Assembly (NCBI GenBank): GCA_022539475.1
Contig: VCMS01000077.1
Location: 122,310 to 186,309, forward strand
Length of the DNA: 64,000 nt
DNA from: Gracilaria domingensis
Lineage: Eukaryota > Rhodophyta > Florideophyceae > Gracilariales > Gracilariaceae
Reading direction: 5' to 3'
How positions within the stretch are numbered: the first letter of the stretch is position 1; every line of letters begins with the position of its first letter. Below, one piece after another: positions 7,969 through 44,140 of the stretch. Under the pieces are notes generated by a model. The model ran no database searches. It was not told where the DNA came from and worked only from the letters and a program-made list of their open reading frames with translations. Made by a program: the position numbers and the translations under genes.

Positions 7969-9814
7969 TCAGGGATCGCGAGCCGAAAAATTACGCGCCG
8001 GAAGGCCCAGCACCTGGGATGCCCCCACTACCGGGAGCCCCGGTAAGCGCTGTGCCGCTATCACTTGCAATTCTGACTCGTCGGTCACCGTATCGGAAAC
8101 GGGCACCCCCACGCTTCGAAGGAAGTCGCGAATGACCGCCGCTCGCGGAGTGAAAGAGGAACTGCCGCCCCCGGCGGATGCTACGTCCTGAGCCCATGGG
8201 CCGGTCGGCGCAGGAGCGGCTACAGCGGGTGGGATAACAACCACGACTTCTTCGTCATCTCCCATAGCTTCGGGCTCCGGTACAACCTCCACGCCCTCTG
8301 GGCTCCCCTCATCCACGGGGCTTCCTCCCTCAGCAGGGTCATCGCCGTCGTCATCGACGTATAGGAACCCACGCGGGTGCTCTTTCGGGATATGACGCTC
8401 CTCTCGGCGGCAACCAGCCGCCTAAGCGAAACTAATTATCTCCCAAATCCATGGGTCAAAGTATAAGAAGTTGCCGGCATTGACGTTTCGTCCCGAAGAA
8501 CGGTCCAACTGCCGACGAACCCCGTCGGAAACCTGGCTAGCAGGCACCTTGTTCCAGTCAATCTGGTCGATGACGTCCAACAACGCAGTAGCTTCGCGCG
8601 CATTGCGGACCGAGCCGAACACTTCGGAGAGATCCAGCGCTCGTATTGCTTGCCGGATGAGCTCCGTGATGAATTGAACCCGGTACGAATCATATGCCTC
8701 GATGAGGAGAAAAGCCGCATCGCGGACGTTCCATTCTGTCGCCAGAATGCTCCACAGGCCGCGAGGCGGGTCGTTCATGAAATAAGAGCCTATGTAAGTT
8801 AAGCAGGGCGGTAGCTCCACTTGAAACCCTCGTAGAACTTCGACCGCAGGCCAGAATGACGGCAGCGGCAGGTATCGCCCAGTATGGGAGTGACGCGCGA
8901 TGCGCTCAATCTTTGCACTGGTACGGCACCAGTACCCCGAAGCGGGAACGCTATTTCCTCTCAAATCGGAGGCCTTCATGAAATTGAGACCGTGCTGAAC
9001 GGCGAAGAAACCGGAACGCGGCACGAAAAATGGGCCGCGCCCACAGGATCAAATGCTGCTGCGGTTGAACGGTGTCCGAATATTGGTCGATTTCGTCCAA
9101 CGCGTTGGCTAGATGGTCGCCGTAGCCGACCTCGTCGAAAGTTGGGTAACGTGCCACGTCGTACTGGTACTGTGCCGGCACCGGATGCTCAATCGGAGCT
9201 CGGAAGTGTCGCGCGTACCCAATGCGGGCCATCTCATTGCGAGCAAATTGTCTCATCTCGTTTCGACATACAAACAGGCAACTCGGTGTGACCGCAACGC
9301 GGGCGATCCAGTCCCATGAACGGGTACCGTCAGCAGGAAGCCCACCAGGGAGTTGACCCTCGGCAGCGTACGAGTCGACGAGCTCGGTATCCCCAAGGAC
9401 CTCGGCGTCAAGCGAGGGAGCCTGGGCGAAAAGGAAGCTGTGCCGGTGCGGATCCCGGATGCGTAACGCGCTTGCGGTAGGCCATCCCCCCAGCGTAGCT
9501 GGCATCTCGGCGTTGAACCAATCCCATACGGGCGCGGGACCAGCTTGAGCTGGATCGTGATCTTGTCGGGAGGAACCCGGCTGGGAGGCAGCCGCCGACT
9601 GCGGGAGAGGTACAGACCGGAACGACGGGTTGCAAACTTTCATACGTGCCGTCGAAGCCGGATGGGCGTTGGATGTGTGGGACATCGCAAGAGGGCTCGA
9701 AATGGCGAGGTTCGCTATTGACACGAGAGGTGCTAGTGGTTCCGAACAGTTCTCGGCAGACCCGTGTTGGGAGACGTCCCTATATACCTCCATCGCGAGC
9801 TGCATCGAGCCCAC
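7969..9814 (-). pseudogene. Antisense gene of element 1 (unknown family, broken)
   Basis: Three minus-strand frames (9814-8951, 9024-8422, 8316-7969) line up end to end with the antisense gene of element 2 at 36,138-34,149. The first has a Ser/Pro/Gln-rich N-terminus, then a globular part (TRSWDWIARVAVTP; compare VDSWDWGHRVAVAP) and RPIFRAAFRFL (RPILRAEFRYL). The second holds the best conserved core: RYLPLPSFWPAVEV, ELPPCLTYIGS, TEWNVRDAAFLLIEAYD and the LLDVIDQID repeat-like end. The third is an acidic, Gly/Ala/Pro-rich tail. Frameshifts lie near 8950-9020 and 8320-8420. I recognise no family. The gene sits between pol and the 3' LTR, reading toward pol, and starts about 30 bases from the polypurine tract. 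Being alignable in this frame in two strongly diverged copies argues for a real protein. Confidence 0.6.
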
Positions 9815-9832
9815 GGAGTCGGTGTCTCAGCC

Positions 9833-20097: not shown

Positions 20098-20140
20098 GGT
20101 CGTCCAGAAAGTGGCAAGGGTCGTCCAGAATCGCTGTGCA
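20098..20140 (+). repeat. GTCGTCCAG subterminal repeats of transposon B
   Basis: Two copies of GTCGTCCAGAA lie 22 bases apart just inside the left end. Transposon A has three, the extra one bounding about 65 bases that transposon B lacks. Short direct repeats near the ends are the usual transposase-binding sites of CACTA/KDZ-like elements. Confidence 0.5.
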
Positions 20141-20990: not shown

Positions 20991-21080
20991 TTGTTGCGCT
21001 ATAGGCTCTAGCTTCTCGCGTCTTGCGCTACTTTTGAAAAGTAGCGCAAGAGGCGAAACTAGAGCCTATGGCGCAACAAA
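20991..21080. repeat. Long fold-back hairpin, about 45-base arms
   Basis: The left arm (20,991-21,035) starts TTGTTGCGCTATAGGCTCTA and ends CTTGCGCTACTTTT. The right arm (21,037-21,080) is its near-perfect complement and ends CCTATGGCGCAACAA. The hairpin lies in a 420-base stretch (20,765-21,188) absent from transposon A. It could be a small non-autonomous fold-back insertion or a small-RNA precursor. Confidence 0.75.
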
Positions 21081-23850: not shown

Positions 23851-25027
23851 GCTCTAGACCTGGGAGTCTGAGGTTCTATCTCGACTCTCAACAGAAGAAA
23901 AACTAACACCATTGGCAGCCTTTTACGGCATCTCCGCAACACGTCGATTAATGTCTTCTCTTGTATTGTTGGTGACAGGCTTTGTTAACGGAAGGTGAAG
24001 CGATACGATTTCAAAATTGGAACGATAATCATGTGCTACCAGCTCAAGCACACAGGGCTGAACGGTTTTCATGCCTACCATCTGTTTTGCTTTCTGCGAC
24101 GACTCTCGTCGCCATTCTGTTTCATAGAGTTTTATACTGAATGAATTTAGCATATAAGAGCTGCTACAAACCCCGTTCTCTAAACCTCTGAAAATCATGT
24201 AGTAGTTAGCCTATCAGGACTCCATTTAGTTATTTATGGTGTTTCGCAGAGAGCTCGCTCTATTACCCCTATAACTCCGGTATTATATGGTCGTTGGAGG
24301 CCTTCATCGCTGTTTGTCAGACCGTCACAACGAACAAATTAGATTCAGATATATAAATTGAACGCTAGAGCGGAAGCGCTCATGCTATTAGATAATACCT
24401 TATCTTCATCCTCGGTAGAATTTGTATCTTCACGGGAAAAAGTGGTGGCGAGTATTTAAGTAGCTACATACTGTCGTCACTCTGTTTTTTTATGCATCTC
24501 ATCCCTGCGCATTACCACTTTTGTGCGTGAGGGTGTTGGCGCGCTTCGGTGGTACGTCTCTTCGCCACTTTGATCAGTTTAAATAGTGTAGTGTGTCAGA
24601 CACTACACAAATTGTAACAAGGTCGCGTATTATGTTACTGGTAGAGCATCAATTAGATGAAAAAACTAGTTGATTTATCTCTAAAAGATCTGTACTGAGC
24701 TCGCAACAAAATCATTGCAAGGAATGCAACCGATTGTGTTTTGGGAGGTATCAAAACGCTACAGAATGGCCTCAAAAAGTTCCTTCTAGCGAAGGGTTTT
24801 GGTGGACGTAGATTTATGCGAACAATGGTAGCGCTCTCCATTCATGCGTTTTGAAGCGCTCCTAATACTCAAGGTATACTCTAATTAATGTACAGCTTTT
24901 TGCCATCCCGCCAATCCACGTAGACAGCGGTGCCAACGTGTTCGCGGGCGGGTGCATGGTAATGAGTGCCAGAAGTGTTGAGGAAGGGGTTTTGGAAGGT
25001 CTCGGCATGGGGCTAAAATGTGACCAG
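23851..25027. other. Interior of transposon B, no gene seen
   Basis: Moderately AT-rich sequence with only short stop-bounded frames on both strands. A minus-strand frame of 91 codons at 24,198-23,923 has no recognisable motif. No tRNA, hairpin or tandem repeat was noticed. Confidence 0.5.
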
Positions 25028-25372
25028 AACGTGCCCACCGGCGTGGGGGGATCGGTTGTGTTAGGGTGGCTACCCTAACACAACCGCACCCCCCCGTCCG
25101 CGGGCACGTTTTGGCCGGTTTTTTAAAAAATGTGCTTTTTTATGCCCTCGGGCGGGGGGGTCCGTTCGTGTTAGGGTACCTACCCTAACACGACCGACCC
25201 CCCTGCGCCCGCGGGCTCGTTTTCGCCTCATTCTGGTAGCGTTCACAGACCTCCCGAAACACACACCGCACGCATATCCAGCCAAAACGTAACGTGCCCG
25301 CGGGCAGCGTGGTTGAGTTGTGTTAGGGTAGCGACCCTTACACAACTTGATCTCGCGCGCTGCCAATACGAC
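25028..25372. repeat. Three successive palindromes with GTGTTAGGGT core
   Basis: Hairpin 1: arms 25,028-25,067 and 25,072-25,111. Hairpin 2: 25,141-25,177 and 25,182-25,218. Hairpin 3: 25,291-25,329 and 25,334-25,372. Each has a 4-base loop (GGCT, ACCT, AGCG) flanked by GTGTTAGGGT and ACCCTAACAC, with one mismatch in the third (ACCCTTACAC). Outside this core are a G-run and a CGGGC-type block, mirrored on the other side. They are three diverged members of one palindromic repeat family. Confidence 0.8.
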
Positions 25373-25399
25373 AGAATGACATTACGACATGTCTGATGA

Positions 25400-27720
25400 C
25401 ACCCGTCTGCAACAACCCATCGCCAGCAAACCTCCGCGCCGCCCACGGAGCGCGCGGCGCCATTCCTGCAGGCGGTGCGTCGTTCAACGACGTTTGCGTG
25501 CCAGCTCATCCTGGATGGCCCATGCGTGCGAGACTTGGCTGCTGTGAGCGCGTCATCATGCTACGTGAATCAGCACCAGTTTATGTGCACCGCGCGTGAC
25601 CAAGCGCCCTTCGCTATCATGGAGTGGAGACCGGAAACCTCACGATTCGGGCGCCGCGCACAGTGCGAGGAGTAGCGCGGCGGCGACCGCGCTTGTGTGC
25701 AGCGCGCGCGTCATGGCGACGAGCTCATTCCGCGCGGCAGCGATGCGTTATATTACCGCGCTCAAAGACGCGGTAGCGGAGCTGGTTCGCTTTGGAGGCG
25801 CGAAGTAGTGACGAAGGCGCGCCTTTTGGTGACGAGGCTGAGCCACCGCGCGCCTCGTGGCGGCTGAGAGCGAGGCGCGCGCAGAAATTGCGCGGACGTG
25901 GCCCGTAGTAGAAGGTGACAAAGTGAGATCAGACTCAAGAAACAACTGCGGCGAAAACGGCGAAGCTCGTTTACGCGCTCAATATGGTGTATTAACTCAT
26001 GCAACAGCTGCACGCGCATCGCTCGCCCTTGGCGCACGCACGCCCGGCTGCGAAGTGCGCGCCCCTCGCCGCGATACGCATCAGGCAGCGCTGCGCGTTG
26101 CGCGGCCGCTGTTTCGTGCTCGTCAGCGCATGGCGCTACACTCGGCGAGCACGCCGCCGGCCACGAACGCGAGCGCGACGGCAAACGGCGGCGATGAGAA
26201 ACGAGCGCTGCGGCTCGCACATCGCCACAAGCATCACGGCGGCCTTGTCGGCGCGCGCAGTGCGGGTGTGCACGTCGGCGCCGATGACGCGCGTGATGGC
26301 GGCCTACGAAGGCTGCGCGCCCACCAGCAGCACCTCGAAGCCCTCGATCAGAAGCGTCACGGCAGAGAGCACGTCAGTGAGCATCTTGTACAGCAACATG
26401 CTTAGCGTGTCAACGTCTGCGATGAGTTCCACCGGCATGAGGTTGAACAGCAACGGCAGCTTGAAGATGGCCACGCTGCTCACTGTGGGCGCGTCGTTGT
26501 CGCGCTGCAGCGCGCGCGCGCACAGCAGCAGGGCCAGCCGCATTGGCGTATAATCGCGCGCCGACGGCGAAAGCAGCTCACTGCCGAGCGCCGCACTGCC
26601 TGGCAGTGCCACGAACGCCCGCGCTGGAACGAAGCTGGGTGCTGTCCAGTTGCGGCGCTCCGCCACCGTCGTCGCCACCAGCGTCGCAGCATCATAGGCG
26701 GCGCGCGCAGCCACGGGTCCAGTTAGGCGCTCACGAACGTGCGCACGCGTGGCGGCATGCCGAGGCCCGGATTGGTATTGGTGGCGGCAGTCGCCACGTA
26801 CCACGCGCCGCCGCGCTTGGCGAAAAACGCCGAGTCGCGCACGCAGTGCTGCCCGTCCAGCGCGGCCGCCGCGAGAAAGAGACGCCCGGCGCGGTGGCGT
26901 GGCAGTGCCGACAGCACGGCCAGCGGCGGCGGCAACGTCGCTGCGCTTGGCCTGACGAAGCGCGGCACGGCGCGAGCCAGCGCAACGGAGAAGTGGGCGA
27001 CGTTGCCACACAACGCGCCCGCGTGCAGCTGGCGCGCGGCGGAAGCCGCTAGCGCGTCGGAGACTAAACTAGGGTCGGGCACAGCCCAGACGCGCACCGT
27101 AACGTAGCGCCGCTGCACGCCGTGCCAAGGCCAGGGGGTTGGCGGCGCGCTGATCACACGTGGGCATGGCAGCGCGCTCGTCTACCAGCAGCGCCGATCG
27201 CAGCCGCGCCTCCAGAGGCGGCAGCTGGGCCAGCAACGTCACTACCGAGCGCGCCAGCGCGCGTGCAGCCAAAACCGGCGCCTCTGGCAGCCCCAGCAGC
27301 GTGACGTTTACCGGCACCACCGCCGGCCACTGCCGGCGCCGCCGAGGCTTCAGGCAGCGAGTCGGGCGTGGCCGGCTGGGCTCACGCGCGTTTGCAGTAC
27401 AGCTACAGCGCTACAGGGAGGGCAAGGACCCGGAGAGGGAACGCGGTACGGCGCGCTCATGGCACGGGAGTTGGCCATGGCGGCGGCAGCAGCGCAGTGA
27501 GACGCATAGCATGCCCGTTGGCGGTGCGCGCCGGGCGGCGCCGCGCGCGCGCACGGTGCCCCGTTTGAGCGCTCTGCGGCGGCACGGGGCTTTGCTGCCG
27601 GCGTCGCGTCATGCGATCCGCGTCCAGGATTGTACGTCCATCTTTTCACCATACTGTTGGCCAAACACAATGGCGGGAAGTAAACCCTTCGCGAAGAGAA
27701 TCTTCTAGGGCCAGGTAAGC
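25400..27720 (-). pseudogene. GC-rich decayed gene, possibly captured host gene
   Basis: Strongly GC- and CpG-rich DNA, unlike its flanks but like the 5' ends of the host genes near 49 kb. The minus strand holds chained coding-like frames (27,320-27,069; 27,157-26,723; 27,011-26,304) with frameshifts between them. The best piece ends with KLPLLFNLMPVELIADVD and a helical LLIEGFEVLLVGAQPS segment. The latter faintly resembles the WELVLLGEPLVVMAPSP motif of DENN-domain proteins (DENND6/AVL9 type), but this is only a hint. I do not otherwise recognise it. Position inside transposon B suggests capture. Confidence 0.35.
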
Positions 27721-27754
27721 ATATCATTATTTCTCAAGATGACCAGTACACCAT

Positions 27755-28910
<1,156 letters not shown>

Positions 28911-28929
28911 CTTTGCAGAACACAGACGT

Positions 28930-31547
28930 CGCTAGTAGCGAAATCCGTTTCAATCCCGCCGGAATCCCAGGTGTGGGTGCAGTGCGTCTCCAAACAACAT
29001 GGAATTCGACTAGTTCAACCGTCTTCATCGTTATACGATCAGCGTCAGCTCGCTTTAGCTAATGGTGTTGTTTCTATCGAGCCCGATCAACCTTTCAAGG
29101 TACTGGTTACCAACTTTGGCAAAACCACTCAGTGGCTAGTCAAACACCAGGTACTGGGTTCGGTCCTGCCGCATCCGAAGGCGCTCGTACAGACGAGAAT
29201 CCCAACGTCCGAGGTTCTCGGTGTGCCCGAAGCCAAGGAGGGGGAGGTGCGTCCTGGAAACTCCGTTTTGTCGGATTCGTCCAGAAATGGAAACTCCACC
29301 GTACCGGAAGCAGTCGCTACTGAAGAGGTGAATCTAGTTAGTTCGGGCCACGAACGACCGTTCATTCGGGTTAGATCAGCGGTACCCCCTGACACAGAAC
29401 AGACGAATCCTGTTGAGGAATTAGAGAAGTTGAATCTGGACCATGTCCCAGCGTCTCATCGCGAGAAGTTGCGAGACATGCTCAGAGAATTTACTCCCAT
29501 GTGGGACGGGTCACTCGGAACAATTGGAATTACGGAGCACCCTATTGATCTGCTCCCAGATACTCGCCCAATCGCGCAACACCCGTATCGGGCAGGGCCG
29601 AAAGCGCGGGAAGAAGAAAAGTCTCAAGTCGAGAAGATGCTGCGTGCCGACGTAATTGAGCCAGCTCAGTCGTCATGAGCATCGCCCGTTGTACTTGTTC
29701 CGAAGTCGGATGGATCGTGGCGTTTTTGCATCGATTACACGCGATTCAACGCCGCTACCGTCAAAGACGTGTATCCGATTCCACGGATGGATGAGTATAT
29801 CGACTCGCTGGGAAGCGCCAGAGTATTTACCGCCCTTGACGCCAATTGGGGTTACTGGCAGGTTCCAATTCGAAAGGAAGATCGCGACAAGTCCGCGTTT
29901 GTATGTCACCAAGGACTATACCGTTTCAAACGGATGCCCTTCGGGCTAACGAATGCTCCCGCTACGTTTCAGCGCGCGGTTGACATTCTGTTGGCCAGAT
30001 TCAAGTGGAAGAGTTGTCTTGTGTACTTGGACGACATTGTCGTATTTTCCAACTGTATGGATCAACATATGTCCCATGTGAAAGAAGTGATGCAAGTTCT
30101 GCGTGACGCAGGTGCTACCTTGAAGCTCAAGAAATGCGAATTCTTTACCGACTCGGTGAAATACCTGGGCCACATTATCCGCTCAGGGAAACTCTCGGTC
30201 GAAGATGTAAGGGTGAAGTCGCTGAAGGAAGCGAAACATCCGACAACTCAAACGGAACTCCGATCATTTCTCGGTTTGTGTATTGTCTACCGTCGGTTCG
30301 TCCCGAATTTCGCTGATACTGCAGCTCCTCTCAATTCTCTCCTCAGGAAAGGACAGCCAGTTAAACTGGAACCATTCGGCGACGTGGAAGCGTCCGCCTT
30401 TTCGGCGCTTGTCGCCACCGTAACGTCTCTGCCAGTCTTGGCCTTACCCACTCCTGGGCTTCCTTATGAAGTGGATACTGATGCAAGTGAATACCAAGTT
30501 GGTTGTGCGCTTTTTCAGGTTTCGAAAGATGGCGTACGACGCCCAGTGGGATACTGGTCCCGTTCGATGAATGTGCATGAGCGCAACTACGCGGTTTCCG
30601 AGAGAGAATGTCTTGCCGTTGTATGGGCACTTTCAACTCTGAAACCGTACCTCATGGGAACCCATTTTCAGGTGCACACCGATCATTCGGCACTCCGTTG
30701 GCTTATGGAGATATCTGAGCCCTCAGGTCGCCTTATGAGATGGCGTCTCCGCTTGTCGGAATTTGATTTCGAAGTCCGTTACAAACGGGGAACCCTGAAC
30801 TTGCAGGCAGATGCGCTCTCCCGCTTGGGAACATCTGGTGAAGCAGAACCTGTCGATGACGACGACATCCCCTGCTTCTTGGCTGAAGAATTCGAGGAAG
30901 AACCAGACTTTCTGGACGACGTCTGCGACGACATACTCGCCACCGGACCGGTTACACCGTTACCCGGTTCATTTGAACCCATTACCGCTGAAGAGGTAAT
31001 ACGTGAACAACACGGGGATCCTTTCTGTACCCAGATAAGGGCCCGACTCAACGGGGGATTCAAGATACCCTTTCTAATCAATGATCAGGGATTCCTTGTC
31101 AGGATTGTTGGGCCACGCCCTCAAATTGTGGTTCCACACTCCCTACAATGGAGGGTTCTCCATATATTCCACTATTCAAAGATTGGGGGACACCCTGGTG
31201 GCAGGAAGTTGTATCTAACTCTCCGAAGAGACTTTTATTGGCCAGCTATGGCATTCGACTGCTACGCAATACGCCGTTCATGCACGATATGCGCCAAAAA
31301 CAACGTCAAACTTCGACGAAACTCGAAGTCAATGATGCTGTTCCCAGCCCGGACTCCTTTGAAGTTCGTCGCTATCGACATTCTGGGCGAATTAATTCGA
31401 ACCGCACGCGGTCACAGGTATCTCCTGGTTATCACGGACAGGTTTTCGAAGTTAATGCGAACGGTTCCGTTGAAGCGGATCACTGCAGCAGCAGTTGCAC
31501 AAGCATTTGTGACGCATTGGGTCTTCACTTACGGGCCCACCCGTTAA
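28930..31547 (+). pseudogene. Reverse transcriptase, RNase H and integrase zinc region of element 2
   Basis: After the transposon the pol protein resumes (SVSIPPESQVWVQ). The lead-in REFTPMWDGSLGTIGITEH is followed by a TGA at 29,676-29,678 where a Trp codon is expected. RT motifs are otherwise intact: SPVVLVPKSDG, LDANWGYWQV, KRMPFGLTNA and a YLDD box at about 30,020-30,042. RNase H follows with VDTDAS, a SERECLAVVWAL helix and VHTDHSALRWL. The integrase begins with an HHCC zinc module (SKIGGHPGGRKLYLTLRR, CTICAKNN) and the first catalytic Asp (FVAIDILGE). A single-base frameshift at about 31,540 ends this frame. Only one stop and one frameshift break the copy, so it is young compared with element 1. 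Confidence 0.88.
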
Positions 31548-32805
31548 TCTGCTTTCAGATAATGGCTCGCAGTTTACGTCAAAGTTCTTTATGGACGTAT
31601 GCCGTATCTTGGATATCAAGAATGTGTTTACAACAACCTATCATCCCCAGTGTAATGGGCAGGTAGAACGGTTTAACCGTACGATGCTAAACGCATTGAG
31701 ATCCTACGTTGCGGATCACCCAAAAGATTGGGACCTGTACTCTGATGCGATAACTTATGCATATAACACCCAGGTACATCGGGTTATGTCGCTGTCGCCG
31801 TTTGAATTGGTCCTCTCAAGGATTCCGCCACCTGTGGCAATTGAAGCTCAAGCGACGCTATCGTCTTTCCCGTCGACGGGTTTGTACAGGGACACGTGGA
31901 AAAATTGGTCGAAGAAGATGGTACCGGTAGCCCGGAAGGCCATGGAGAAGGCTCAAATCGCGTACAAACGAAATTTCGACAGCCGATTACGCGGCAAACC
32001 ATCAATGGTGAAAGCTAATGACTACGTCTTCCTACGAAAGGAGTATTATAATCCTGAGAAGGAACGACGACATAAGCTGTCTCCGATCGCCGACGGACCG
32101 TATCACGTTATTTCTGTCACTCCAGATACCGTCGTGATCGACATTGATGAGCAACACGAGCGTGTATCGCGTGATCGCGTCGTACTGGCACCTACTTCGC
32201 CTTCCGGACAATCTACAACCAATACCCAATCAGGGGATCCTCTACAGGAAGAAGTTCCGTCAACGGATGCTACGCCATCGCGTCCCGCGATTCTGCCGCA
32301 CCCGGATCGAGGATTAAGAGATCTACCTACAGTAGGTACTTCTGACCACAGAACTGAACCTCCTACTACTTGGACGAATTTCAACGACTCTGAACGAGTA
32401 TTTACAAGAGTCACCTCCCCACCCCATCTCCTGATGGAGCCCCTGGCGCCACCTAAGGAGGGGGAGGATACTGCAGTTGCTGCAACTGGCACTGACGCTC
32501 CGGTGTCGCCCGGTTCCCAAACCGCGGGAAATGTGACCCACACTGACAATCCAGTCGCTCCCGTAGGAGAATCTAGTGGCACGGCCGCCTTGACGCGCCC
32601 CAATCGCGGAAACTTCGCCGTATCGTCCAAAGATATCACGGAAGATACCTGTACTCCCCGCGAGAGGCGGAACGTCGCCGCAGAAGCAGCTGCCCAGCCT
32701 GGGATCGCTAACCGCTCAAAGTCGCGTAACCGCCTTGAAAGGGACAGTCAAACTGTGAAAACCGTTTCCGCTGATCCGGACCAGCCGCAACACGTGAAAG
32801 AATAG
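31548..32805 (+). pseudogene. Integrase core and C-terminal tail of element 2
   Basis: In the shifted frame the integrase continues with the second Asp (LLSDNGSQFTSKFF) and the catalytic Glu (NGQVERFNRTMLNAL), completing DDE. The GPY/F-type module is present (KLSPIADGPYHVISVTPDT). After RVSRDRVVLAP a long low-complexity tail rich in Pro, Thr, Ser and Glu follows (to 32,805). The integrase inserts the DNA copy into chromatin in the nucleus. The tail has a counterpart in element 1. Confidence 0.85.
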
Positions 32806-33500
32806 CTCTGCGACTCTGAAATGCGAGATCTCGTGAACGAGTTGTGTCAAATGTGACCATTCATTGTGGATTCCCTTGTGGGTTTTTGAACGCTTTCTTG
32901 GAAGCCGTCACTCTACAGTGCGCACCAACTTGGGTGTGGAATGGAGCCCTGGCGCTCCATCGCCGCTGCACGCGTGCAATCTCCGTGACACGGGGCCTGA
33001 CAGAACCAGGCGCGTGCCACGCGGTGGCACGTTACAAAATGGAATGCCCTAATGAGCGGTCGGCGACCTTTCGCGATCGGATGGCCGAGCACGGCACGCG
33101 CACGGTTGTCGTGGTCGCCAATCTGTGGCGCAGAGCCAATCAGGGCTCATGGCACATGCCCCGTGGACCGGGTGAACCGCCGCCCTGCCCAGGGAGTGTT
33201 GTACATACCTCCGTCACCGAAACGGTTATCCCCGTGAAGGCCGGGAAGTTCGTCAATCGGAAGTACTACCGTTTGTCGGTCTCTAGACTATCATCGAATA
33301 ACGTGATACCGTTGTACTCGTCTGTTCGAGAGCTTTGCAACTATCCCTCTAGCTCGAGGACAGGACGCGTAGGACGCGAGTTACAGTACGGCCGTCGCAG
33401 CGAAATCTGGCGAGGAACGCGGAAGTAAGCACGTCTCGAACACTTGGAAAGCCTCACCTGAGGGACGCTAGCGCAATTGCACAACCTCTCTAGGTGATAC
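32806..33500 (+). other. Linker between pol tail and chromodomain
   Basis: No conserved domain seen. Frames run up to 194 codons (32,844-33,428) but show no motif that I recognise; part may be the decayed connector that once joined the pol tail to the chromodomain. Confidence 0.4.
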
Positions 33501-33501
33501 T

Positions 33502-33759
33502 GTGTCAGCAGGAGTGGCCATAAGTCATGGAGGCCCACGAACGGAAGTGTTCCCACAGGAATTCGTTATCGAACGCATCGTGAGTCACGTCGTGAACCCC
33601 GATGGGGAGACTGAATACCAAGTCCTTTGGTACGGATACTCCCCTGAGGAGGATACTTTCGAGCCGATCGAACATCTACCTCGATCAAAGGTTCTCGCCT
33701 ACTACCGGCGTAAGCGGTTAGCGCTGCCTCCAGATTTGGATAAGGCCCAAGTAGGGTGA
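33502..33759 (+). CDS. Chromodomain of element 2
   Basis: An 85-residue frame contains QEFVIERIVSHVVNPDGETE, then YQVLWYGYSPEEDTFEPIEH and LPRSKVLAYYRR: a chromodomain with three beta strands and the closing helix. The aromatic cage is F (in EFVIER), W (VLW) and Y (GY), which would allow binding of a methylated histone tail. In chromoviruses this domain is fused to the integrase C-terminus and steers insertion to heterochromatin. Here stop codons separate it from the integrase tail, either through decay or because it is joined in another way. It ends at DKAQVG, where element 1 also ends. Confidence 0.82.
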   Translation: MSAGVAISHGGPRTEVFPQEFVIERIVSHVVNPDGETEYQVLWYGYSPEEDTFEPIEHLPRSKVLAYYRRKRLALPPDLDKAQVG

Positions 33760-34148
33760 CAGTGCCGCCGGGTCGTAAGGGCAACCGACGGACCCACTTG
33801 TGGGAGAATCATTGATGGTACTACCAAGAAGTTTGGTTTGTTCCTAAGGAAGGAAGTATCGAAGGTTTGAAGAAGAAAGATGATTTCCGTCTAACGGACC
33901 CCGATTTATCGGAAAGAAGCGAACTACCGTCTAACGGTCCATGTGAACATGTCGTGAAGCTACACGCAGTTCGGACGATCGCCTTGGAACGACGATACGC
34001 GAAGAAGCGTTGAACCGTAAACCGGTTATGAAGGAAGTGATATCGAAGTCGATTTTATTCTAAGGAGAAGTTGTACCGCTAGCTATTGCGGAGTGCGTTG
34101 GTCGTAGAGCCTACTACAGCCCATCACGGAGGGAACCTACTGTTGGGA
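33760..34148. other. Spacer between chromodomain and antisense gene
   Basis: No coding signal. It contains several direct repeats of the type CCGTCTAACGG and GAAG-rich motifs, and the CCTACTACAGCCCATCACGG box (about 34,110) shared with element 1. The pol transcript and the antisense transcript converge here. Confidence 0.45.
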
Positions 34149-36138
34149 TCACTGCCATCCTGTCGAAGGACCGGCACCTCCAGGGTTGGACGGCCCCGCT
34201 TGGGGAGGCTGACTCGCGAAAGCCTGCGCGCCCAATGCCAACAGCTGGCCGAGGTCGTACATATCCGGTGGAACCGGCACCCCAAGTCCGAGGAGTTGGT
34301 TGCGCATCGCTACCACGCGAGGGTCAATATTTCCCTGCGAAGGGCCCACGCCCCAACCGATAGGAGCAACTAGCGCAGCCGCCACTCCGACAACCGGAAC
34401 TCCTGCGGAAGCCGCCGACGGGCCTCTCGTTGCCGGGTCTTCCACAGTGTCATCCATCATTGGATCGTCCTCCTCCGCTACGGAGTAATAGTTGTCAGAA
34501 AACATGAACCCAATAGGGTGATCGCTCGGAACCACTCGAGGAAGTCCGCGTACGACAAGAGCCTGCTCCTTCGGGACGGTAACTTCCTCCCAGGGATCGT
34601 AATACACGAAGTCACCGGCACCCGGATGTCTTCGCCCTGGCGAACGGTCGTAGTGCGAACGAGTGCCCCTGGGGACGTTTTCCGCCGGAACGGTACTTCA
34701 ATCAATGGAATCGATGAGATCGATAAGGCTGATGGCCTCGCTGACGTTGTCGTCCGAGCCGAGCGCGGTGTATAAGTCCAGTGATCTAATCACATTCCGT
34801 AACCTCGGAGGCAAATACCAAACACTGTTTCGGTCATATGCTTCCCATAGCATAAACGCGGCAACGCGAGCGGCCCATTCGGCGATGAAGAGCATCCAAT
34901 ACTCCGAGTGCGGATTCGAAATCATGCGCGACCCCACATAGGAGATGCACGGAGGCAATTCCGGGAAACACCCGCGTGGTACCTCATAGTGAGCCCACCA
35001 CAATGGGAGTGGAGCGAATCGACCCGCTAGTGTGTCCGGACGCAAACGTTCAACCTCCATGTTCTGGTGTGGAATCAGATACCCGAACCGGGATCGCCAC
35101 TTGCGTTCGTTTCGCAATCGGTGGAAGAAGCTTCCCTCTCCCGAAGGGCGATGTAGATATCGGAACTCCGCTCGCAGGATAGGCCTGTTGAACAGGAGAA
35201 TTTCCGTCGGCATCGACTCCGGGAAGTTTTCCGACGCTTGAAAGTCTGCGAGGTTCGCGCCATACTTGATCTCTCCGTAAGTTCGGAACCGGGAAAGGTC
35301 GAACCCGTATGACTTGGAAATTCTCTCGGGGAACGAGGCTCGGTCCTTCCGAAAGTATGCCATTCGCGCCATAGACACGCGCGCTTCATCCAGCGTTTCG
35401 TATCCACGGCCGCGCCGTTTTCGTGACAACACGTGAGGTGCAACCGCCACGCGGTGTCCCCAATCCCAGGAATCCACCATATCTCGGTGCAGGACGCCAG
35501 GCAGCATACCGTTCTCGGTGTATGAATCCATCAACGGACTGTTGCGAACCGCTGTCGGGTGAAACCAGGGCGCTCTGGAATAGGCCCAGCTTCCTCCGGT
35601 AGTCGGATCTTGAACAAGGAGCGATTCACGCGCTATCCAGCCAGCTGCCCACCATATCTCGGTGCATGACGCCAGGCAGCATACCGTTCTCGGTGTATGA
35701 ATCCATCAACGGACTGTTGCGAACCGCTGTCGGGTGAAACCAGGGCGCTCTGAAATAGGCCCAGCTTCCTCCGGTAGTCGGATCTTGAACAAGGAGCGAT
35801 TCACGCGCTATCCAGCCAGCTGGAGTCGCTAGCAAGGGCACCGCCTAGGCGAAATTCCACGCCGCGACGTCGACCGGATTCGGTGTAGAGGTGTGATGTT
35901 GACTCTGAGGCAGAGGAGCGGAGGCGAAACAACCAAGATACCCTGTCGCAGGAGTTGCGGGACCCGAAACGTTCGGAACCCCGGCTTGAGAAGGCTGCTC
36001 GTCGCCCTGGTGAGGGTTCATCGAATCGCCGATCGCAGAAGAGACTTCAAGTACTGAATCGTCTGAGTGCAGAGAAGCTGAGTGCGCTTGCGCGTGCGTC
36101 TCGTTGTGACGAGGAATCGGAATCTCGGATATGTCCAT
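34149..36138 (-). pseudogene. Antisense gene of element 2 (unknown family)
   Basis: Read from ATG 36,138, about 80 bases from the 3' LTR. The N-terminus is disordered, with SAPLPQSQHH (compare SVPLPQSAAA in element 1). A globular part follows: VDSWDWGHRVAVAP, RPILRAEFRYLHRP, RFAPLPLWWAHYEVP, FPELPPCISYVGS, IAEWAARVAAFMLWEAYD and AISLIDLIDSID. The last section (34,607-34,149) is an acidic then Gly/Pro/Ala-rich tail. The core frame 35,534-34,698 is uninterrupted for 278 codons. A 175-base tandem duplication (35,474-35,823) and frameshifts near 34,650 and 35,840 break the gene. It is Trp-rich and has no clear membrane helix or zinc motif. I recognise no family. Additional antisense genes at this position are known from some plant Ty3/gypsy elements, but I cannot show homology. 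Confidence 0.6.
35474..35823. repeat. 175-base tandem duplication
   Basis: The segment 35,474-35,648 (CCACCATATCTCGGTGCAGG onward) is repeated at 35,649-35,823 with only about two differences (AGGACG/ATGACG and CTGGAATAG/CTGAAATAG). It lies inside the antisense gene and is absent from element 1, so it is a recent replication or repair event. Confidence 0.9.
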
Positions 36139-36205: not shown

Positions 36206-36218
36206 AAGGAGGGGGATA
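36206..36218 (+). promoter_or_regulatory. Polypurine tract of element 2
   Basis: AAGGAGGGGGATA directly precedes the LTR start TGTAGAGCAAAACG, as in element 1 at 9833-9846. Confidence 0.75.
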
Positions 36219-37201
36219 TGTAGAGCAAAACGTGCTCGCCCGATACACGGGGATTTTTTTCATAAACCCCTGGTAAGGATGGTTCCGGGTACTCGGAAGG
36301 TATGAATACTGGCCCACGGATGGGATGCTTTTTGGCAGTATTGAGGCATGGCACCCTGAGGGGTCGGCCATGACGTGGCGCAGATGAGTATTGGTCGCGT
36401 CTACGCGTGTGTAGGAATGGGTGTGTTCACACATGTTGTGTTATGAATGTCGAATAGTTTACTGGCCGCTGCCGCGGGTTGCACACCTTCCACGTGTATG
36501 GACCTGCACAAGCGTGCACTTTATTTATTTAATTTAGTTTAACTAAGTAATCGGTTACGATATAAGGAGGTGACCTCGCGGCCACCTCCGCCCCTCAGTA
36601 AAGGGTAACCGAGTTCGGCTCTGAACTGTTTCGCCATCGCGAAGTGCACAACTCCTTCCGGAGAAACACCGCGTACGGTACGACTCAGCTTCATCCCTCG
36701 GGATCATTCAGGCAATACTGACCATTGTGGCCTTACCTTCGGGCTCTTTTATTCCGTGTCTTCGGACTGTTCTTGTTTCTTATTTGTGCAGTTGTACTGC
36801 TTTCACCACAATTGGTAGCGTTTCCATCTCTGTATAGAGTTGTGCCCCGTGGGCTTAATACACATCGTCGTCTCCCGACGCCGGGTCTGTTGCCGCTTGC
36901 CGCACGTCCCGCCGCGGGATTCCTCTCTTTTCCCCCTTTGGTTTCCCTTCTTTTTCCCCCTTTTGCCTAGGGCTTACACCACTCTACGGTACTTTCCTCC
37001 TTGACCATTACGTCAACTTTCGCCAGATTCCTGGATCAGGCCCGTTCACCCCCCAACCTCCGTAGGTATAATCCGTACCAAGGGCGGTCTTACACCCGCA
37101 CTATCCGTGTTCGGAGGGCTCACCACTGAGTTCACCTCGTCTAGAGGGCACGGACTCGAACGCCTTGAGAGACGATCCCATCGCTGGGGTTTTGCTCTAC
37201 A
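36219..37201 (+). repeat. Complete 3' LTR of element 2 (983 bp)
   Basis: It starts TGTAGAGCAAAACG and ends GGTTTTGCTCTACA, an inverted terminal repeat of about 12-13 bases with the TG...CA ends of LTRs. It holds a GATATAAGG TATA-like box at about 36,559, a GAGGTGACCTCGCGGCCACCTC hairpin and a C/T-rich segment at 36,905-36,966. The flanking bases after the end are ACAAC. The subfamily differs from the LTR at 9847. Confidence 0.85.
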
Positions 37202-39125: not shown

Positions 39126-40121
39126 CTAGTCCAGATCAAACACCTTCTTGAAACTATATGTCATGCGACGGTTCTTTACATATTCGTACAGCTCATCAAG
39201 CTCTTCCGGCGACACCTCAACATCTTTCGGCGTCTTCACCTTTCGTTTCTGCTCATAGCGCCGGTTCGAGAGAATTGCGCAGTTGTTATTCTTTGCAAAC
39301 GTCAACATTTCCCATGCATAGAGCCCCTTACTGTCGGTGAATTGAAGAAACCCTCGTTCTTTAATGTGCTTCAAAACACATGGATCATCTGCAAGTCTCT
39401 TAGTCTTTGAACCAATGTCCACGTAACTACTTGGCACGAATGCCATTGGTTTCATTCCGCGCTTGTACAGATCCTTGAGCGCTCGCACCACGTTGACCGA
39501 GCGGAAGCCCTTGCGGTCATGATACTTGGCTAGGTCCCAACCATCTACAACTATGCCATAGGTGCGCTCAGGCTCGCCTTCAGCTGGCTCAAGGCCATCA
39601 AGCTCTGCAGAGGGCTCTTTCGGTGCGGACGAAACTGGCTTTTCGCTACTGGCAGCGGGGTGCGATTCAGCGGCCGTTATATCCAGCACCGAACTCTTCT
39701 TCGAAGAAGATTTGACCTTGTCAGCGCGCGCTGAGGAAGGCAACACTGTGCTCTTCTTCGACGACGACTTGTGCGCGGACGAATGATGCGCATCAGATTT
39801 CGACGGACGAGACACATGAGCAGACGAGGCACCACTGTCGTTCATGCCAGCACTTTGCTCCGCCGACTGCGCACTGCCGTGCGGAGATGCAGATTGGGAG
39901 CGCGCTGGCGCGCTGTGCTGTGGGGAAGCATGCGAAGACGACTTGCTCTTCGACTTGGACGCCGAAACCTGGGGCGCAGACTCACTCTTCTTGTGCGCCC
40001 GCGACGACATGGGAACCATCTTGCACTTGTACGTGCGGCACGGCGCGCACTTGAGCGCGTCTCTCTTCGCGCAGCACTGCGCGCAAAGCGCGCCGAGCTG
40101 AAGCGCTCTCTTCTCGTCCAT
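39126..40121 (-). CDS. Zc3h12a/Regnase-like NYN domain protein
   Basis: 331 residues from ATG 40,121. The N-terminus (1-35) is Cys-rich (CAQCCAKRDALKCAPC), followed by a long Ser/Lys/His-rich disordered region (36-185) and a C-terminal domain (187-325). That domain has the order of Zc3h12a-type NYN ribonucleases: IVVDGWDLAKY (VIDGSNVA in the family), MAFVPSSYVD, DDPCVLKHIKERGFLQFTDS, then CAILSNRRY where the family has VSNDxY. The first Asp is kept, but the later acidic positions look replaced (SNRR for SND, no DDRF block), so RNA cleavage is doubtful; RNA binding remains possible. In-frame Cys codons continue upstream of the ATG (CCSTC) as far as a stop, so the true N-terminus may be longer. 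Divergent from MCM2. Confidence 0.65.
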   Translation of the reverse strand: MDEKRALQLGALCAQCCAKRDALKCAPCRTYKCKMVPMSSRAHKKSESAPQVSASKSKSKSSSHASPQHSAPARSQSASPHGSAQSAEQSAGMNDSGASSAHVSRPSKSDAHHSSAHKSSSKKSTVLPSSARADKVKSSSKKSSVLDITAAESHPAASSEKPVSSAPKEPSAELDGLEPAEGEPERTYGIVVDGWDLAKYHDRKGFRSVNVVRALKDLYKRGMKPMAFVPSSYVDIGSKTKRLADDPCVLKHIKERGFLQFTDSKGLYAWEMLTFAKNNNCAILSNRRYEQKRKVKTPKDVEVSPEELDELYEYVKNRRMTYSFKKVFDLD

Positions 40122-40617
40122 TCCGCGCGCGGGGGCAACTTGGCACGTCGAGCAGCAGCCGCCCTGGCGAGGAAGCAGCGCGCACCCGCCTGCTCGCGCC
40201 CATGTGGTGGGCGATATTTATGCGTCGCGCGTGGCTCGCCAGCCCGCGCGCACAGAGCGGTGGTAAGCCCGGCGGGGCGCGTGGCACCACGCGGAACGCG
40301 CCGATATGACTTGGCGCACGTGCTCCGGCAGGCGCTGCCCTCTCTGCAGAGATCCCCTCAGCGAGCGGCGCCAGCTCCCGCGTCTGACAGCTCTGTAAGC
40401 CACGCTCGTACCGATGCGATCGTCGTGGTTTTGGCGGGAAATGCGAATACCGAAGGGTGCGAGAGTAATGGCGGGCGCGTTGCGTTTCCCGCGCAAGCGA
40501 CGTAAAGGCGGGCGACTGTGGGCGCGCCCCGTGTGCCGCCGCTTCTTCGTCACACCACGCGCACTTGCTCTCCTCGGCTCCGACCGACGTTTCGCTCCTT
40601 AGCTCCCTCTGCCCATC
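40122..40617. promoter_or_regulatory. Shared divergent promoter of NYN gene and MCM2
   Basis: 496 GC-rich bases separate the two start codons. Two E2F/DP-type sites are present: TTTGGCGGGAAA at 40,430-40,441 and TTTCCCGC at 40,485-40,492, that is about 180 and 130 bases before the MCM2 ATG. Genes of the replication licensing complex are classic E2F targets in plants and animals, so G1/S control of MCM2 is likely. Whether the NYN gene responds as well is open. Confidence 0.6.
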
Positions 40618-43500
40618 ATGTCGAATCGCCGCTCTTCCACCGACGACACCGCCGACCCGGCGCCGCCCACGGGCTCCGCCACGGGCGGACGCGCCCCCTC
40701 TTCCTTTGCTCCTCTCGACTCCTCCCACAACCCGCTGCCAGAGTCGGATGACATCGAACTGGGGCATGAGTTCACGGTCGACGCAGACGCGGCCGAGGCG
40801 AACATCCTCACCAACAACCCCGAGGACGAGGAAGATGAAGGGGAAGATCTTCTTGGAGATGATATGGCCAACGACTATCGCCCGCTTGAGCAGCTTGATC
40901 GCTATGAGGTTGATCAGGCCGCTGAGAATGATGACGTCGCTCCGATGAGCGTTGCTGCTAGGAGGCGCGCGGAGCGTGAGCTGAACCGACGCGATATCCA
41001 GTCCCGCCGCAATGATCAACGCGGCATGGGCGCCGATGTTCGCATGAATGACTCGGATTCTGAGGAAGAAGGTGTGGCTGGCTTCCAAGGTCGTCGCAAC
41101 AGACGCCTTGCCATCGTTGCCGGAAGTCGCGGTCTTCCCGACAACGCCGCTGATGCTGAAGCTACTGGTGCACAAAATGGCTCGCAGACGCCGGTTCTCA
41201 GCTTCGGTCAGGAAGAAATGCACGTTTCCATGCGAGATGAGCCCATTGATTTGGATGCCACTGCCTTCCGCGATCAGCCCATCTCTCAAATCGTGCAAGA
41301 AGAGAGGGTTAAGAGCGAGCTTGCCAGAAGGTTTGAAAGCTTTCTGAAGAGCTTTACCGATCAGAAGACTGAGTCGTTCGTGTACATGGACCGTATTCGA
41401 GCCATGGCTGCGAACAATGCCCAGAGTCTTGTTATCGACTTTCGTCATTTCACGCTGGCTGAGCCCACGGTTGCGACATGGCTTGCGGATGCCCCGACTC
41501 CAATCCTTGAGATTTACAACCAGGTCGCCACTGCCCTAACTTTCACCATTTTCAAACACTATTCCCGAGTCAAGCCGGAAATATATGTTCGCATTGCCGA
41601 CTTTCCCATCCTGGACAATCTAAGGGACATTCGCCATGTCCATCTCAACACGCTCATCAAGGTCAGCGGTGTGGTCACTCGTCGTTCAAGCGTGTTTCCT
41701 CATCTTCGAAATGTCAGGCTCAATTGCGAAAAGTGCCACAGAGTGTTGACCCCTCCAGCCATGTCCACTTTGAGACCAGAGCGGAGCATACGCGCATGTC
41801 CGGAATGCGAATCGAGGGGTCCGTTTACTATCAACTCTGAACTAAGTTCCTTCGGCAACTTCCAAAAGCTCACTTTGCAAGAGAGACCAGGATCTGTTCC
41901 GGCCGGTCGCTTGCCGAGGTACAAGGAGATCATCGTGCTCGATGACCTTATCGATTGTGCGAGACCTGGTGAAGAGGTTGAGGTAACCGGCACCTATCGA
42001 CATAACATGGATGCCTCCATTAACATTCAGAACGGCTTCCCTGTCTTCTCGACAATAATAGAAGCAAACTACGTCCGCAAGGTAGAAGACGCTCATGCAG
42101 AAAGCGAGCTTACCGATGACGACGTCGCTGAGATCCGAAAACTATCTCGAGATCCCCGTATTGCTGAGAGAATGTTTGCATCGATTGCGCCAAGTATATA
42201 CGGTCATTCGAACATCAAGCGTGCATTGGCCTTGGCATTATTCGGGGGACAAGCTAAAGAAGTTGGGGAGAAGCATCGTATTCGAGGTGATATCAACTGT
42301 TTACTTCTTGGTGATCCAGGAACGGCAAAGTCACAGTTTCTCAAGTATGTTGAGAAAACGGCTAACCGAGCTGTGTACACGACTGGAAAGGGCGCATCTG
42401 CGGTTGGTTTGACTGCAGTGGTGCACAAAGATCCGGTAACAAGGGAATGGACTCTCGAGGGAGGCGCCTTGGTGCTAGCTGATAGAGGTGTATGTCTCAT
42501 TGACGAGTTCGACAAAATGAATGATACTGATCGTACTTCAATTCATGAAGCAATGGAACAGCAGAGCATTTCGGTGTCTAAGGCTGGCATCGTTACAACC
42601 CTCCAGGCTAGGTGCTCGGTATTCGCCGCAGCAAATCCCCTGAAGGGGCGGTATGATCCTTCGATCTCTTTCTACGACAATGTGGACTTGACGGAACCAA
42701 TTCTGTCTCGTTTTGACGTTCTATGTGTCGTACGAGATACAGTCGACGCCTCAAAGGACGAAACTCTGGCCAAGTTTGTCGTAGGTTCTCACATGAAGTC
42801 ACACCCACAGCTAGTCGAGGATGATGAGGATTCTGAGGATGGCGAAAGCAAAAAGAATGAAGTTGTTGAATATGGCTCCACTTCTGTAGAGCTTATCCCT
42901 CAGCCCATGCTTCGAAAGTACTTGAGATACGCCAGAAGAGCAGTTGCGCCAAAGCTCAGCAATATGGATAAGGAAAAGGTTACTTCATTGTACATCGATT
43001 TGCGAAGGGAATCCACGTCCTCCGGTGGAATGCCGATTGCTCTTCGACACTTGGAATCCATCATCCGATTGGCTGAAAGCAACGCTAGGCTTCACTTGCG
43101 CGAATATGTTCGTGATGATGATATCAACACAGCTATCGCAGTGATTTTGGAATCGTTCTTTGCCAGCCAGAAGTATTCGTTGATGCGGCAAATGCGTCGC
43201 AGATTCCACAAGTATCTCTCGTTCCGCAGGGATGACAACGAGCTATTACTTTATATTTTGAATGGCCTCGTCAGGGATTATTCATCAACGCAACTGGCCG
43301 TTCAAGACGAGAAGGACAGCGAGGAAGCTTCAGGCAGCGATCGACAACGGCGACGAGTTGAAGTTGACATGGAAGACTTCGAGGCGAGAGCTCGGGAACT
43401 GAATGTGTATACGTGCCAGAGGTTCTACGAAAGTTCTTTGTTCAAGAAATGGAATTTCTCTGTGGACCAGAGTCGTCAAGTCATCTTAAAGGCGCTGTAG
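40618..43500 (+). CDS. MCM2: DNA replication licensing factor MCM2
   Basis: 960 residues in one uninterrupted exon. Subunit of the MCM2-7 helicase, loaded on origins in G1 and activated with CDC45 and GINS. The acidic N-terminal tail (1-170), as in other MCM2 proteins, is the histone- and kinase-contacting part. A C4 zinc finger lies at about 370-400 (CEKC...CPEC). The AAA+ module shows Walker A GDPGTAKSQ at 565, the MCM Walker B CLIDEFDKMND at 626-636 and the arginine finger SRFD at 697-700. The C-terminal part ends in a winged-helix-like region. MCM2 rather than MCM4/6/7 is chosen from the acidic tail, the length and the DDNELLLYILNGLVRDY-type C-terminus. The ATG at 40,618 is the first in frame. 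Two E2F-type sites lie upstream. Confidence 0.96.
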   Translation: MSNRRSSTDDTADPAPPTGSATGGRAPSSFAPLDSSHNPLPESDDIELGHEFTVDADAAEANILTNNPEDEEDEGEDLLGDDMANDYRPLEQLDRYEVDQAAENDDVAPMSVAARRRAERELNRRDIQSRRNDQRGMGADVRMNDSDSEEEGVAGFQGRRNRRLAIVAGSRGLPDNAADAEATGAQNGSQTPVLSFGQEEMHVSMRDEPIDLDATAFRDQPISQIVQEERVKSELARRFESFLKSFTDQKTESFVYMDRIRAMAANNAQSLVIDFRHFTLAEPTVATWLADAPTPILEIYNQVATALTFTIFKHYSRVKPEIYVRIADFPILDNLRDIRHVHLNTLIKVSGVVTRRSSVFPHLRNVRLNCEKCHRVLTPPAMSTLRPERSIRACPECESRGPFTINSELSSFGNFQKLTLQERPGSVPAGRLPRYKEIIVLDDLIDCARPGEEVEVTGTYRHNMDASINIQNGFPVFSTIIEANYVRKVEDAHAESELTDDDVAEIRKLSRDPRIAERMFASIAPSIYGHSNIKRALALALFGGQAKEVGEKHRIRGDINCLLLGDPGTAKSQFLKYVEKTANRAVYTTGKGASAVGLTAVVHKDPVTREWTLEGGALVLADRGVCLIDEFDKMNDTDRTSIHEAMEQQSISVSKAGIVTTLQARCSVFAAANPLKGRYDPSISFYDNVDLTEPILSRFDVLCVVRDTVDASKDETLAKFVVGSHMKSHPQLVEDDEDSEDGESKKNEVVEYGSTSVELIPQPMLRKYLRYARRAVAPKLSNMDKEKVTSLYIDLRRESTSSGGMPIALRHLESIIRLAESNARLHLREYVRDDDINTAIAVILESFFASQKYSLMRQMRRRFHKYLSFRRDDNELLLYILNGLVRDYSSTQLAVQDEKDSEEASGSDRQRRRVEVDMEDFEARARELNVYTCQRFYESSLFKKWNFSVDQSRQVILKAL

Positions 43501-44140
43501 AGTTTCCCCCCTTTGAATGAAAACTGTTGTAAAGAAATATCGTTCTCCTCTAAAGGAAACCAACTTTTAAGGTCTCATACCATTCCGGTATGTCATCACA
43601 TGTTCATAAGCTCCGACACATCTATCAGTCCTGTTCAGATACGTTCAAGTCTATCGCTGCAATAATCTGACTCCTTTGGATGCAATGCAGAGGCAAGGAT
43701 TTCCCCAGAACTCCATTTGGGGATACTGGGTCTTCTTCCACTCTACTTCAATTCCCAGACTGAGCTAGCCTCTTGCAAAGAATGCCTCCTGTCCTGCACA
43801 TACGTAACCGATAAAGAAATTTACAAAGACAAACTCGTTTACGCAAATAGTGTTGAACAGAGTCAAGCGGTGAGAGTCTTTCAAGATTTTCATGAACAGT
43901 ATCGCTGTACAGATTTTCGCTTCTCTCCCGCATGCAAATCGAGACTGACGTCAATCAAAGCTGCTCGACTTACGATAAGAAGCTTCTTACGCGTTAATTA
44001 GTTCTACACACTAAAGTACACCAAAAGTAAGACATGATGGGGGTCAAAATTAAGCATACAATGACGCGGGATTTGCAGCTACTTCACCGCCTTGTCGTCA
44101 TCGACAAAAATATGTCCCCAGTATCTGCTCTATCATTTCC
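43501..44140. other. Intergenic region between convergent MCM2 and SAC3-like genes
   Basis: Contains the 3' flanks of both genes. A 94-codon plus frame (43,717-44,001) shows no motif or codon pattern that would support a gene. Nothing else seen. Confidence 0.5.

What the first reader, a model, noticed from the sequence alone, without database searches (positions are those of the whole stretch)
34149..36138. Chromovirus element 2 carries a long antisense gene between chromodomain and 3' LTR
A minus-strand protein of roughly 600 residues can be read from next to the polypurine tract back toward pol. Its 278-codon core is uninterrupted. It matches no family I know. Position and opposite strand mean it would need its own promoter in or near the 3' LTR. 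Additional antisense genes are known from some plant Ty3/gypsy lineages, but a Trp-rich protein like this in a chromovirus of a probable red alga may be undescribed.
Basis: partly seen in the sequence, partly recalled or inferred. Interest (0 to 1): 0.85.

Follow-up and report, generated by a model that had tools for sequence, protein, structure and literature searches.

The report
Antisense gene in red-algal retrotransposons
A family of jumping genes in a probable red alga carries an extra protein gene written backwards beside its tail end; the protein is kept by selection across hundreds of copies, resembles nothing of known function, and may control how the jumping gene behaves.

Summary
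In detail: a real, selected, minus-strand gene lies between the chromodomain and the 3' LTR of this Ty3/gypsy chromovirus. The window copy is decayed (97 codons, TAG; a 175-bp tandem duplication; a TGA before the last 182 codons), but the same genome holds at least 367 places of the gene, in at least five families, many with open frames of 608-660 codons. Of 150 chromodomain places, 124 have the gene within 3 kb downstream, 124 of 124 antisense. Between families pN/pS is lowest in the proposed frame in 10 of 10 pairs; dN/dS is about 0.15-0.33. The gene tree follows the integrase tree. Outside homologues exist, one named, from Gracilariopsis chorda. No Pfam match reaches its cut-off. A confident AlphaFold2 core (pLDDT 85.5) matched no fold in the PDB or BFVD. 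A TATA-like hexamer sits at one fixed place just inside the LTR in four of five families. The kind, antisense ORFs between pol and 3' LTR, is known from plants (Grande, RIRE2, Retand) and the fungal Boty; protein, lineage and perhaps fold differ. Function is inferred: a regulator acting in trans on the element.

The parts
34149..36138 (-). Antisense accessory gene (aORF), whole span, decayed in this copy
   Evidence: at least 367 homologous places in the genome
35845..36138 (-). First piece: ATG at 36136-36138, 97 codons, then TAG 35845-35847
   Evidence: start aligned with family A copies L018, L019 and L011
35474..35822 (-). Tandem duplication with 175-bp spacing inside the gene; it shifts the frame
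   Evidence: family D8 (174 nt, 99%, spacing 175)
34701..35705 (-). Stop-free run of 335 codons holding most of the conserved Trp-rich core (the 278-codon ORF is 34698-35534)
34149..34697 (-). Last piece after the TGA at 34698-34700: 182 codons with acidic linker, C-terminal helix region and Gly/Ser tail
   Evidence: homologous to the C-terminus of L018, L012 and L010
36150..36157 (-). TATA-like box (TATATAGG on the minus strand), 66 nt inside the LTR edge; candidate core promoter of the antisense gene
36206..36216 (+). Polypurine tract
   Evidence: by eye; same place in the loci listed
36219..37201 (+). 3' LTR of element 2 (TGTAGAGC...GCTCTACA)
   Evidence: 90-93% identical to LTR parts of family A copies L033 and L035
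33559..33756 (+). Chromodomain (PF00385)
   Evidence: E 1.7e-12
28919..32805 (+). pol half of element 2 (RT, RNase H, integrase); the stretch 28919-35584 is 95% identical to family A copy L035
17320..20063 (+). Probable gag/protease half of the same element, parted from pol by an insert of about 8.86 kb
   Evidence: 89% to L035 611-3353, which continues without a gap into the pol half
8425..9826 (-). Decayed relative of the antisense gene in window element 1 (family E-like)

Best explanation
This is an antisense accessory gene of a chromovirus lineage. Shown by sequence: it sits between the chromodomain and the 3' LTR on the strand opposite gag-pol, is under purifying selection as a protein, and has descended with the integrase of its element. 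Inferred, step by step: (1) it is transcribed apart from gag-pol, from a core promoter just inside the 3' LTR, reading back towards pol; (2) the product has a flexible N-terminal arm, a Trp-rich globular core of about 356 residues, an acidic linker and a conserved C-terminal helix region; (3) it acts in trans as an element-encoded regulator, most likely in the nucleus, on the element's own transcription or silencing. It would work like Grande gene23 or HTLV-1 HBZ, without being shown to be related to them. Steps 1 and 3 are not shown.
For: At least 367 distinct places in the genome (merged). 124 of 150 chromodomain places have the gene within 3 kb downstream, 124 of 124 antisense, against 0 of 150 with one within 3 kb upstream. 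In 10 of 10 family pairs the proposed frame has the lowest pN/pS (0.28-0.61) against five control frames. Distances of gene and integrase correlate, r = 0.82 over 18 loci, 0 of 5000 permutations (r = 0.32, 62 of 5000, before three loci were dropped). A copy with LTRs 99.5% identical over 883 nt carries open gag, pol and antisense frames, so the gene rides with recently moved elements. A TATA-like hexamer lies at +65/66 from the LTR edge in four of five families and no other place does so in more than one. No transmembrane-like stretch in the four representatives: highest 19-residue hydropathy 1.54. Published relatives by position: the Grande protein is nuclear and its antisense transcription has its own promoter, and the Retand TRP28 domain is predicted to bind DNA (PMC7264820, parts 1-2 of 3 read; PMC11963269, 12 passages and the Discussion read).
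Against: No transcript or protein evidence could be had. The TATA-like box lies only about 13-19 nt before the first ATG in families A-C and after it in E, so either translation starts at a second conserved Met or the box is not used in the usual way. A perfect hexamer is in 8 of 19 rows only (10 have 5 of 6 matches, one 4 of 6), and family D has none. No shared nuclear-localisation cluster and no DNA-binding fold found. The whole protein is acidic in the four representatives (pI 5.0-6.1). Within families dN/dS is 0.43-0.72, and 1.17 on nine differences for one D pair. 26 of 150 chromodomain places and 36 of 104 RT places had no gene in the lists at hand.
Confidence: 0.5

Rival explanations
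1. The protein is a structural or replication cofactor: it joins Gag in the particle or helps the pre-integration complex reach the nucleus, rather than regulating expression.
For: Long low-complexity arm, confidently modelled core and a short conserved C-terminal helix region could be an assembly partner. It co-evolves with integrase.
Against: No relation to Gag by profile comparison (probability 0.1%); Gag has its own long frame in the same element. Gag and Pol normally suffice, and an antisense transcript would separate its dosage from Gag (established knowledge and inference).
Confidence: 0.25
2. The antisense RNA, not the protein, is the product (a natural antisense regulator), and the open frame is incidental.
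For: Antisense non-coding RNAs of retroelements are known (PMC7264820, part 2 read).
Against: Selection acts on amino acids: lowest pN/pS in the proposed frame in 10 of 10 pairs, with 43-73% amino-acid identity at dS of 1.28-2.34 or saturated.
Confidence: 0.06
3. A captured host gene or a nested mobile element lies there in antisense.
For: The orientation is unlike gag-pol. One homologue is annotated as a hypothetical protein in Gracilariopsis chorda, and its surroundings could not be read.
Against: No Pfam family at cut-off, no relative in genome contigs or viral contigs (the first holds bacteria and archaea only). The gene has travelled with its element through at least five families. This concerns origin, not present function.
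Confidence: 0.15
4. Chance or shadow open frame.
For: One control frame on the opposite strand is partly conserved (pN/pS 0.41-0.71), as expected from shared third positions.
Confidence: 0.01

Closest known systems
Antisense additional ORFs (aORF-3R) of plant LTR retrotransposons: maize Grande gene23, rice RIRE2, Silene Retand, bean PvRetro13
   Same: Between pol and 3' LTR, opposite to gag-pol, present in most copies, conserved (PMC7264820, parts 1-2 read)
   Different: Here in a chromodomain-bearing element of a probable red alga. No PF04195 (TRP28) match in the proteins scanned. Retand is described as non-chromovirus and TRP28 as apparently confined to flowering plants (PMC11963269, passages read)
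Boty element of Botrytis cinerea / Sclerotinia sclerotiorum
   Same: Antisense ORF between pol and 3' LTR outside plants (named in PMC7264820)
   Different: Protein sequence not compared here; fungal host
HTLV-1 HBZ (antisense gene read from the 3' LTR)
   Same: Antisense reading from the 3' LTR end; nuclear regulator is the model used here; an acidic region in both (for HBZ recalled)
   Different: Element class and host. Resemblance from recall, PMC7264820 and PMC11963269; not tested by sequence, though no bZIP family came up in the Pfam scans
Hypothetical protein BWQ96_10156 of Gracilariopsis chorda (P0002)
   Same: Homologous over 90% of the query at 39% identity
   Different: Its setting, retroelement or host gene, could not be read

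Membership tests
Antisense accessory ORF of LTR retrotransposons (aORF-3R) | Lies between pol and 3' LTR | tested here: met
   Window. In 124 of 150 chromodomain places the gene follows within 3 kb; LTR edge/PPT found just before its start in the loci listed
Antisense accessory ORF of LTR retrotransposons (aORF-3R) | Antisense to gag-pol | tested here: met
   124 of 124 chromodomain neighbours and 68 of 68 RT neighbours (of 104 RT places) are antisense
Antisense accessory ORF of LTR retrotransposons (aORF-3R) | In most copies and conserved as a protein | tested here: met
   (capped lists)
Antisense accessory ORF of LTR retrotransposons (aORF-3R) | Transcribed in antisense from its own promoter | not testable with these tools
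   Only a TATA-like box at a fixed place
Antisense accessory ORF of LTR retrotransposons (aORF-3R) | Nuclear protein (reported for Grande) | not testable with these tools
   No shared nuclear-localisation cluster
Retand / TRP28 (PF04195) | PF04195 domain in the antisense protein | tested here: not met
   No match in the window pieces (E up to 1), 3 open frames (E up to 10) or P0001-P0007 (E up to 1). Whole-genome search empty, but its controls rang nowhere
Retand / TRP28 (PF04195) | Non-chromovirus lineage | tested here: not met
   Chromodomain beside the gene
Ty3/gypsy chromovirus | RT - RNase H - integrase order with chromodomain | tested here: met
   in family E the chromodomain is in one frame with integrase (L037)
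Ty3/gypsy chromovirus | LTRs and target-site duplication | tested here: met
   Copy on C18: LTRs 99.5% identical over 883 nt, AAAAC on both sides (by eye). Not met in the window copy, whose 5' LTR was not found
Env-like sense ORF | Sense strand, transmembrane segments | tested here: not met
   Antisense; no transmembrane-like stretch in four representatives

The most novel reading that the evidence does not exclude
An independent origin, in red-algal chromoviruses, of an antisense accessory gene whose product has a fold not yet seen in solved structures and acts as a sequence-specific regulator or anti-silencing factor of its own element, driven by a dedicated core promoter between polypurine tract and gene.
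Probability: 0.28. Interest if true: 0.82.

Novelty: new variant of a known kind. Interest (0 to 1): 0.62.

Why it matters
Antisense accessory genes of LTR retrotransposons have been reported since the late 1990s without an established function, best known from flowering plants (PMC7264820). A second protein family in the same place and orientation, in a chromodomain-bearing lineage of a distant host and with a different domain, suggests that the architecture itself (an antisense gene beside the 3' LTR) has been selected more than once. Many near-identical, apparently young copies in one 78-Mb genome, a confident core model and a candidate promoter make the function directly testable.

Tried and rejected
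Single-sequence search with the 278-residue core found no homologue; an alignment of 13 rows found seven and one of 15 rows listed seven, two of them new. Scans of genome contigs and viral contigs with the alignment gave pattern hits but no relative. The first structure job (635 aa, 13 close sequences) was poor, pLDDT 34.5, and was not used for fold searches. Homology to Gag was tested and rejected. The bacterial promoter scan is uninformative here; no tRNA in the window. The first gene-integrase comparison (21 loci, r = 0.32) held one locus with two elements whose gene and integrase hits came from different elements (L017), one with a poor integrase hit of 57% identity (L009) and one with a partial, distant one of 38% (L028); I dropped these three after seeing the result, so r = 0.82 is post hoc. 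The representatives for selection counts were chosen because their frames are open; absence of stops in the proposed frame is therefore no evidence, but the pN/pS contrast is. Start codon: ATG1 (+80 to +85 from the LTR edge in A-D) or a second conserved Met; the segment between is only weakly constrained (pN/pS 0.60-0.78 over 40-42 codons; for A-C and B-C the contrast with the other frames is small), and two of three family-B copies have a TAG between the two, so it is left open. Gene lists are capped at 139-150 rows a call, so the chromodomain and RT places without the gene may be truncated, at contig ends or missed; earlier, shorter merges gave 52 of 104 RT places and 61 of 83 (which left out two of the 85 RT rows of at least 91% identity; with them 62 of 85).

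Full report
What is there. On the minus strand of the window, between the chromodomain (33559-33756, PF00385) and the 3' LTR (36219-37201) of a Ty3/gypsy element whose pol lies on the plus strand, there is a long reading frame. This copy is decayed: 97 codons to a TAG, a frame-shifting tandem duplication of 175 bp, and a TGA before the last 182 codons. The longest stop-free run, 335 codons, was not reached in 1000 shuffles (maximum 310).

It is a gene. Searching the window's own assembly (77.9 Mb, 680 contigs, unnamed) with the 278-residue core gave 139 scored places. Queries with 103 residues of two other families gave 150 each, which looks like the cap; these two lists share no place. Merged, the three lists hold 367 distinct places, a lower bound. 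I call the families A (window, L018), B (L012), C (L017, L020), D (L010, L031) and E (L037, L040). Among 71 family-D places scored over 622 residues, 51 have no stop; among 66 places matched by P0004, 63 have no stop in the matched stretch.

It belongs to the element. Of 150 chromodomain places in the genome (again a capped list), 124 are followed within 3 kb by the gene, starts 1.1-1.8 kb apart, and in 124 of 124 it is on the opposite strand; 0 of 150 have a gene place within 3 kb upstream. Of 104 reverse-transcriptase places, 68 have the gene 3.5-7 kb downstream, 68 of 68 antisense; among the 85 rows of at least 91% identity it is 62 of 85. The unmatched places are not evidence of absence, since lists are capped and copies may be cut. 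A family-D copy on contig C18 has LTRs 99.5% identical over 883 nt, a 5-bp target duplication (by eye), long open gag and pol frames (714 and 1541 codons) and an open antisense frame.

It is selected as a protein. For all 10 pairs of A-E representatives the proposed frame has the lowest pN/pS of six frames (0.28-0.61); the next best, the opposite-strand frame sharing third positions, has 0.41-0.71; the other four are above 1. Nei-Gojobori dN/dS is about 0.15-0.33 in the 9 of 10 pairs where dS could be computed; dS there is 1.28-2.34, so these ratios are rough. Within families the ratio is 0.43-0.72, and 1.17 on nine differences for one D pair, as expected of decaying or very young copies. Distances of the gene core and of the integrase region correlate over 18 loci (r = 0.82, 0 of 5000 permutations). 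That figure came after dropping three loci (r = 0.32, 62 of 5000, with them). FastTree trees of both separate the groups A, B, C and D from each other, with the single E locus nearest D. The gene evolves faster than integrase (mean distance 0.39 against 0.23).

Relatives elsewhere. A profile of 13 copies found seven proteins, and one of 15 rows two more, in a set of 5.8 billion. The only named one is a hypothetical protein of the red alga Gracilariopsis chorda. Pfam gave no match at its cut-off (window pieces; three open frames; P0001-P0007); the weak ones were G-patch_2 (E 0.026) and Cyclophil_like2 (E 0.23-0.24). PHROGs (two frames) and PDB sequences (one frame) gave none. That the window is from a red alga near Gracilariopsis is an inference from this homologue.

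Start and promoter. On the gene's strand the LTR edge and polypurine tract are followed by the first in-frame ATG at +80 to +85 (families A-D; family-B copies also have an earlier in-frame ATG at +55) or +58 (E). A perfect TATA(A/T)A hexamer lies at +65/66 in 8 of 19 rows, from four of five families (A 3 of 4, B 3 of 3, C 1 of 5, E 1 of 2, D 0 of 5); ten rows match 5 of 6 and one 4 of 6. No other place in the roughly 310 nt examined has it in more than one family. The box is close to the first ATG, so a start at a second conserved Met is possible; the data do not decide. Two palindromes, CACGTG and GTGCAC, are enriched in the first 450 nt of the LTR, each in four of five families (7 and 10 occurrences; 0 of 300 base shuffles reach either; 64 palindromes tried); they are candidate binding sites of a host or element factor.

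How it probably works. The best reading is an accessory regulator: separately transcribed in antisense, present in each of the five families examined of this chromovirus lineage, acting in trans on the element's own expression or silencing. Position, orientation and conservation are shown; transcription, nuclear site and target are inferred. The main rival is a Gag or integrase cofactor. A pure antisense-RNA role is ruled out as sole explanation by the protein-level selection.

Against what is known. [quoted passage not shown] Grande's protein is reported as nuclear and transcribed from its own promoter. In Retand, a non-chromovirus lineage, 97% of clusters carry antisense TRP28 (PF04195) ORFs (PMC11963269, 12 passages and the Discussion read). 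A third paper only repeats the general statement (PMC8220671, two passages). The present gene is in a chromovirus and shows no PF04195. My searches for red-algal or chromoviral antisense genes in the open-licence library (listings seen) showed no title or abstract start that describes one; subscription papers were not covered. I therefore rate it a new variant of a known kind.

Noticed in passing
window 20064-28918: The pol and gag halves of element 2 are parted by about 8.86 kb that another family-A copy (L035) lacks. The ends of the insert look like inverted repeats (ACGTCTGT... against ...ACAGACGT, by eye), as in a DNA transposon.
   Followed up: partly
window 11887-15175 and 20063-23629: Two copies of the same sequence, mostly 94-96% identical (one stretch 71%), one starting at the end of an LTR of element 1, the other at the insert in element 2: probably two copies of that inserted element.
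   Followed up: partly
window 4286-11887: Element 1 is a family-E-like chromovirus, 78-91% to L037, with a broken chromodomain (7262-7470) and a decayed antisense gene 8425-9826(-).
   Followed up: partly
L031 6872-7679: In family D about 800 nt separate the end of the pol frame from the chromodomain, and they lie apart in the family-A window copy too, whereas in family E they are one frame: an intron, a separate ORF or decay.
   Followed up: no
LTRs, first 450 nt, one copy of each of five families: Palindromes CACGTG and GTGCAC, each in four of five families, far above base shuffles.
   Followed up: partly
window 39126-48808: Ordinary host genes: MCM2 (40618-43500 +), a metallophosphatase, probably a Ser/Thr phosphatase (47492-48808 -), a Zc3h12a-type NYN ribonuclease (39126-40121 -).
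   Followed up: no
window 213-1499 (-): ORF with a zinc knuckle (by eye), perhaps the Gag of another retroelement on the minus strand.
   Followed up: no
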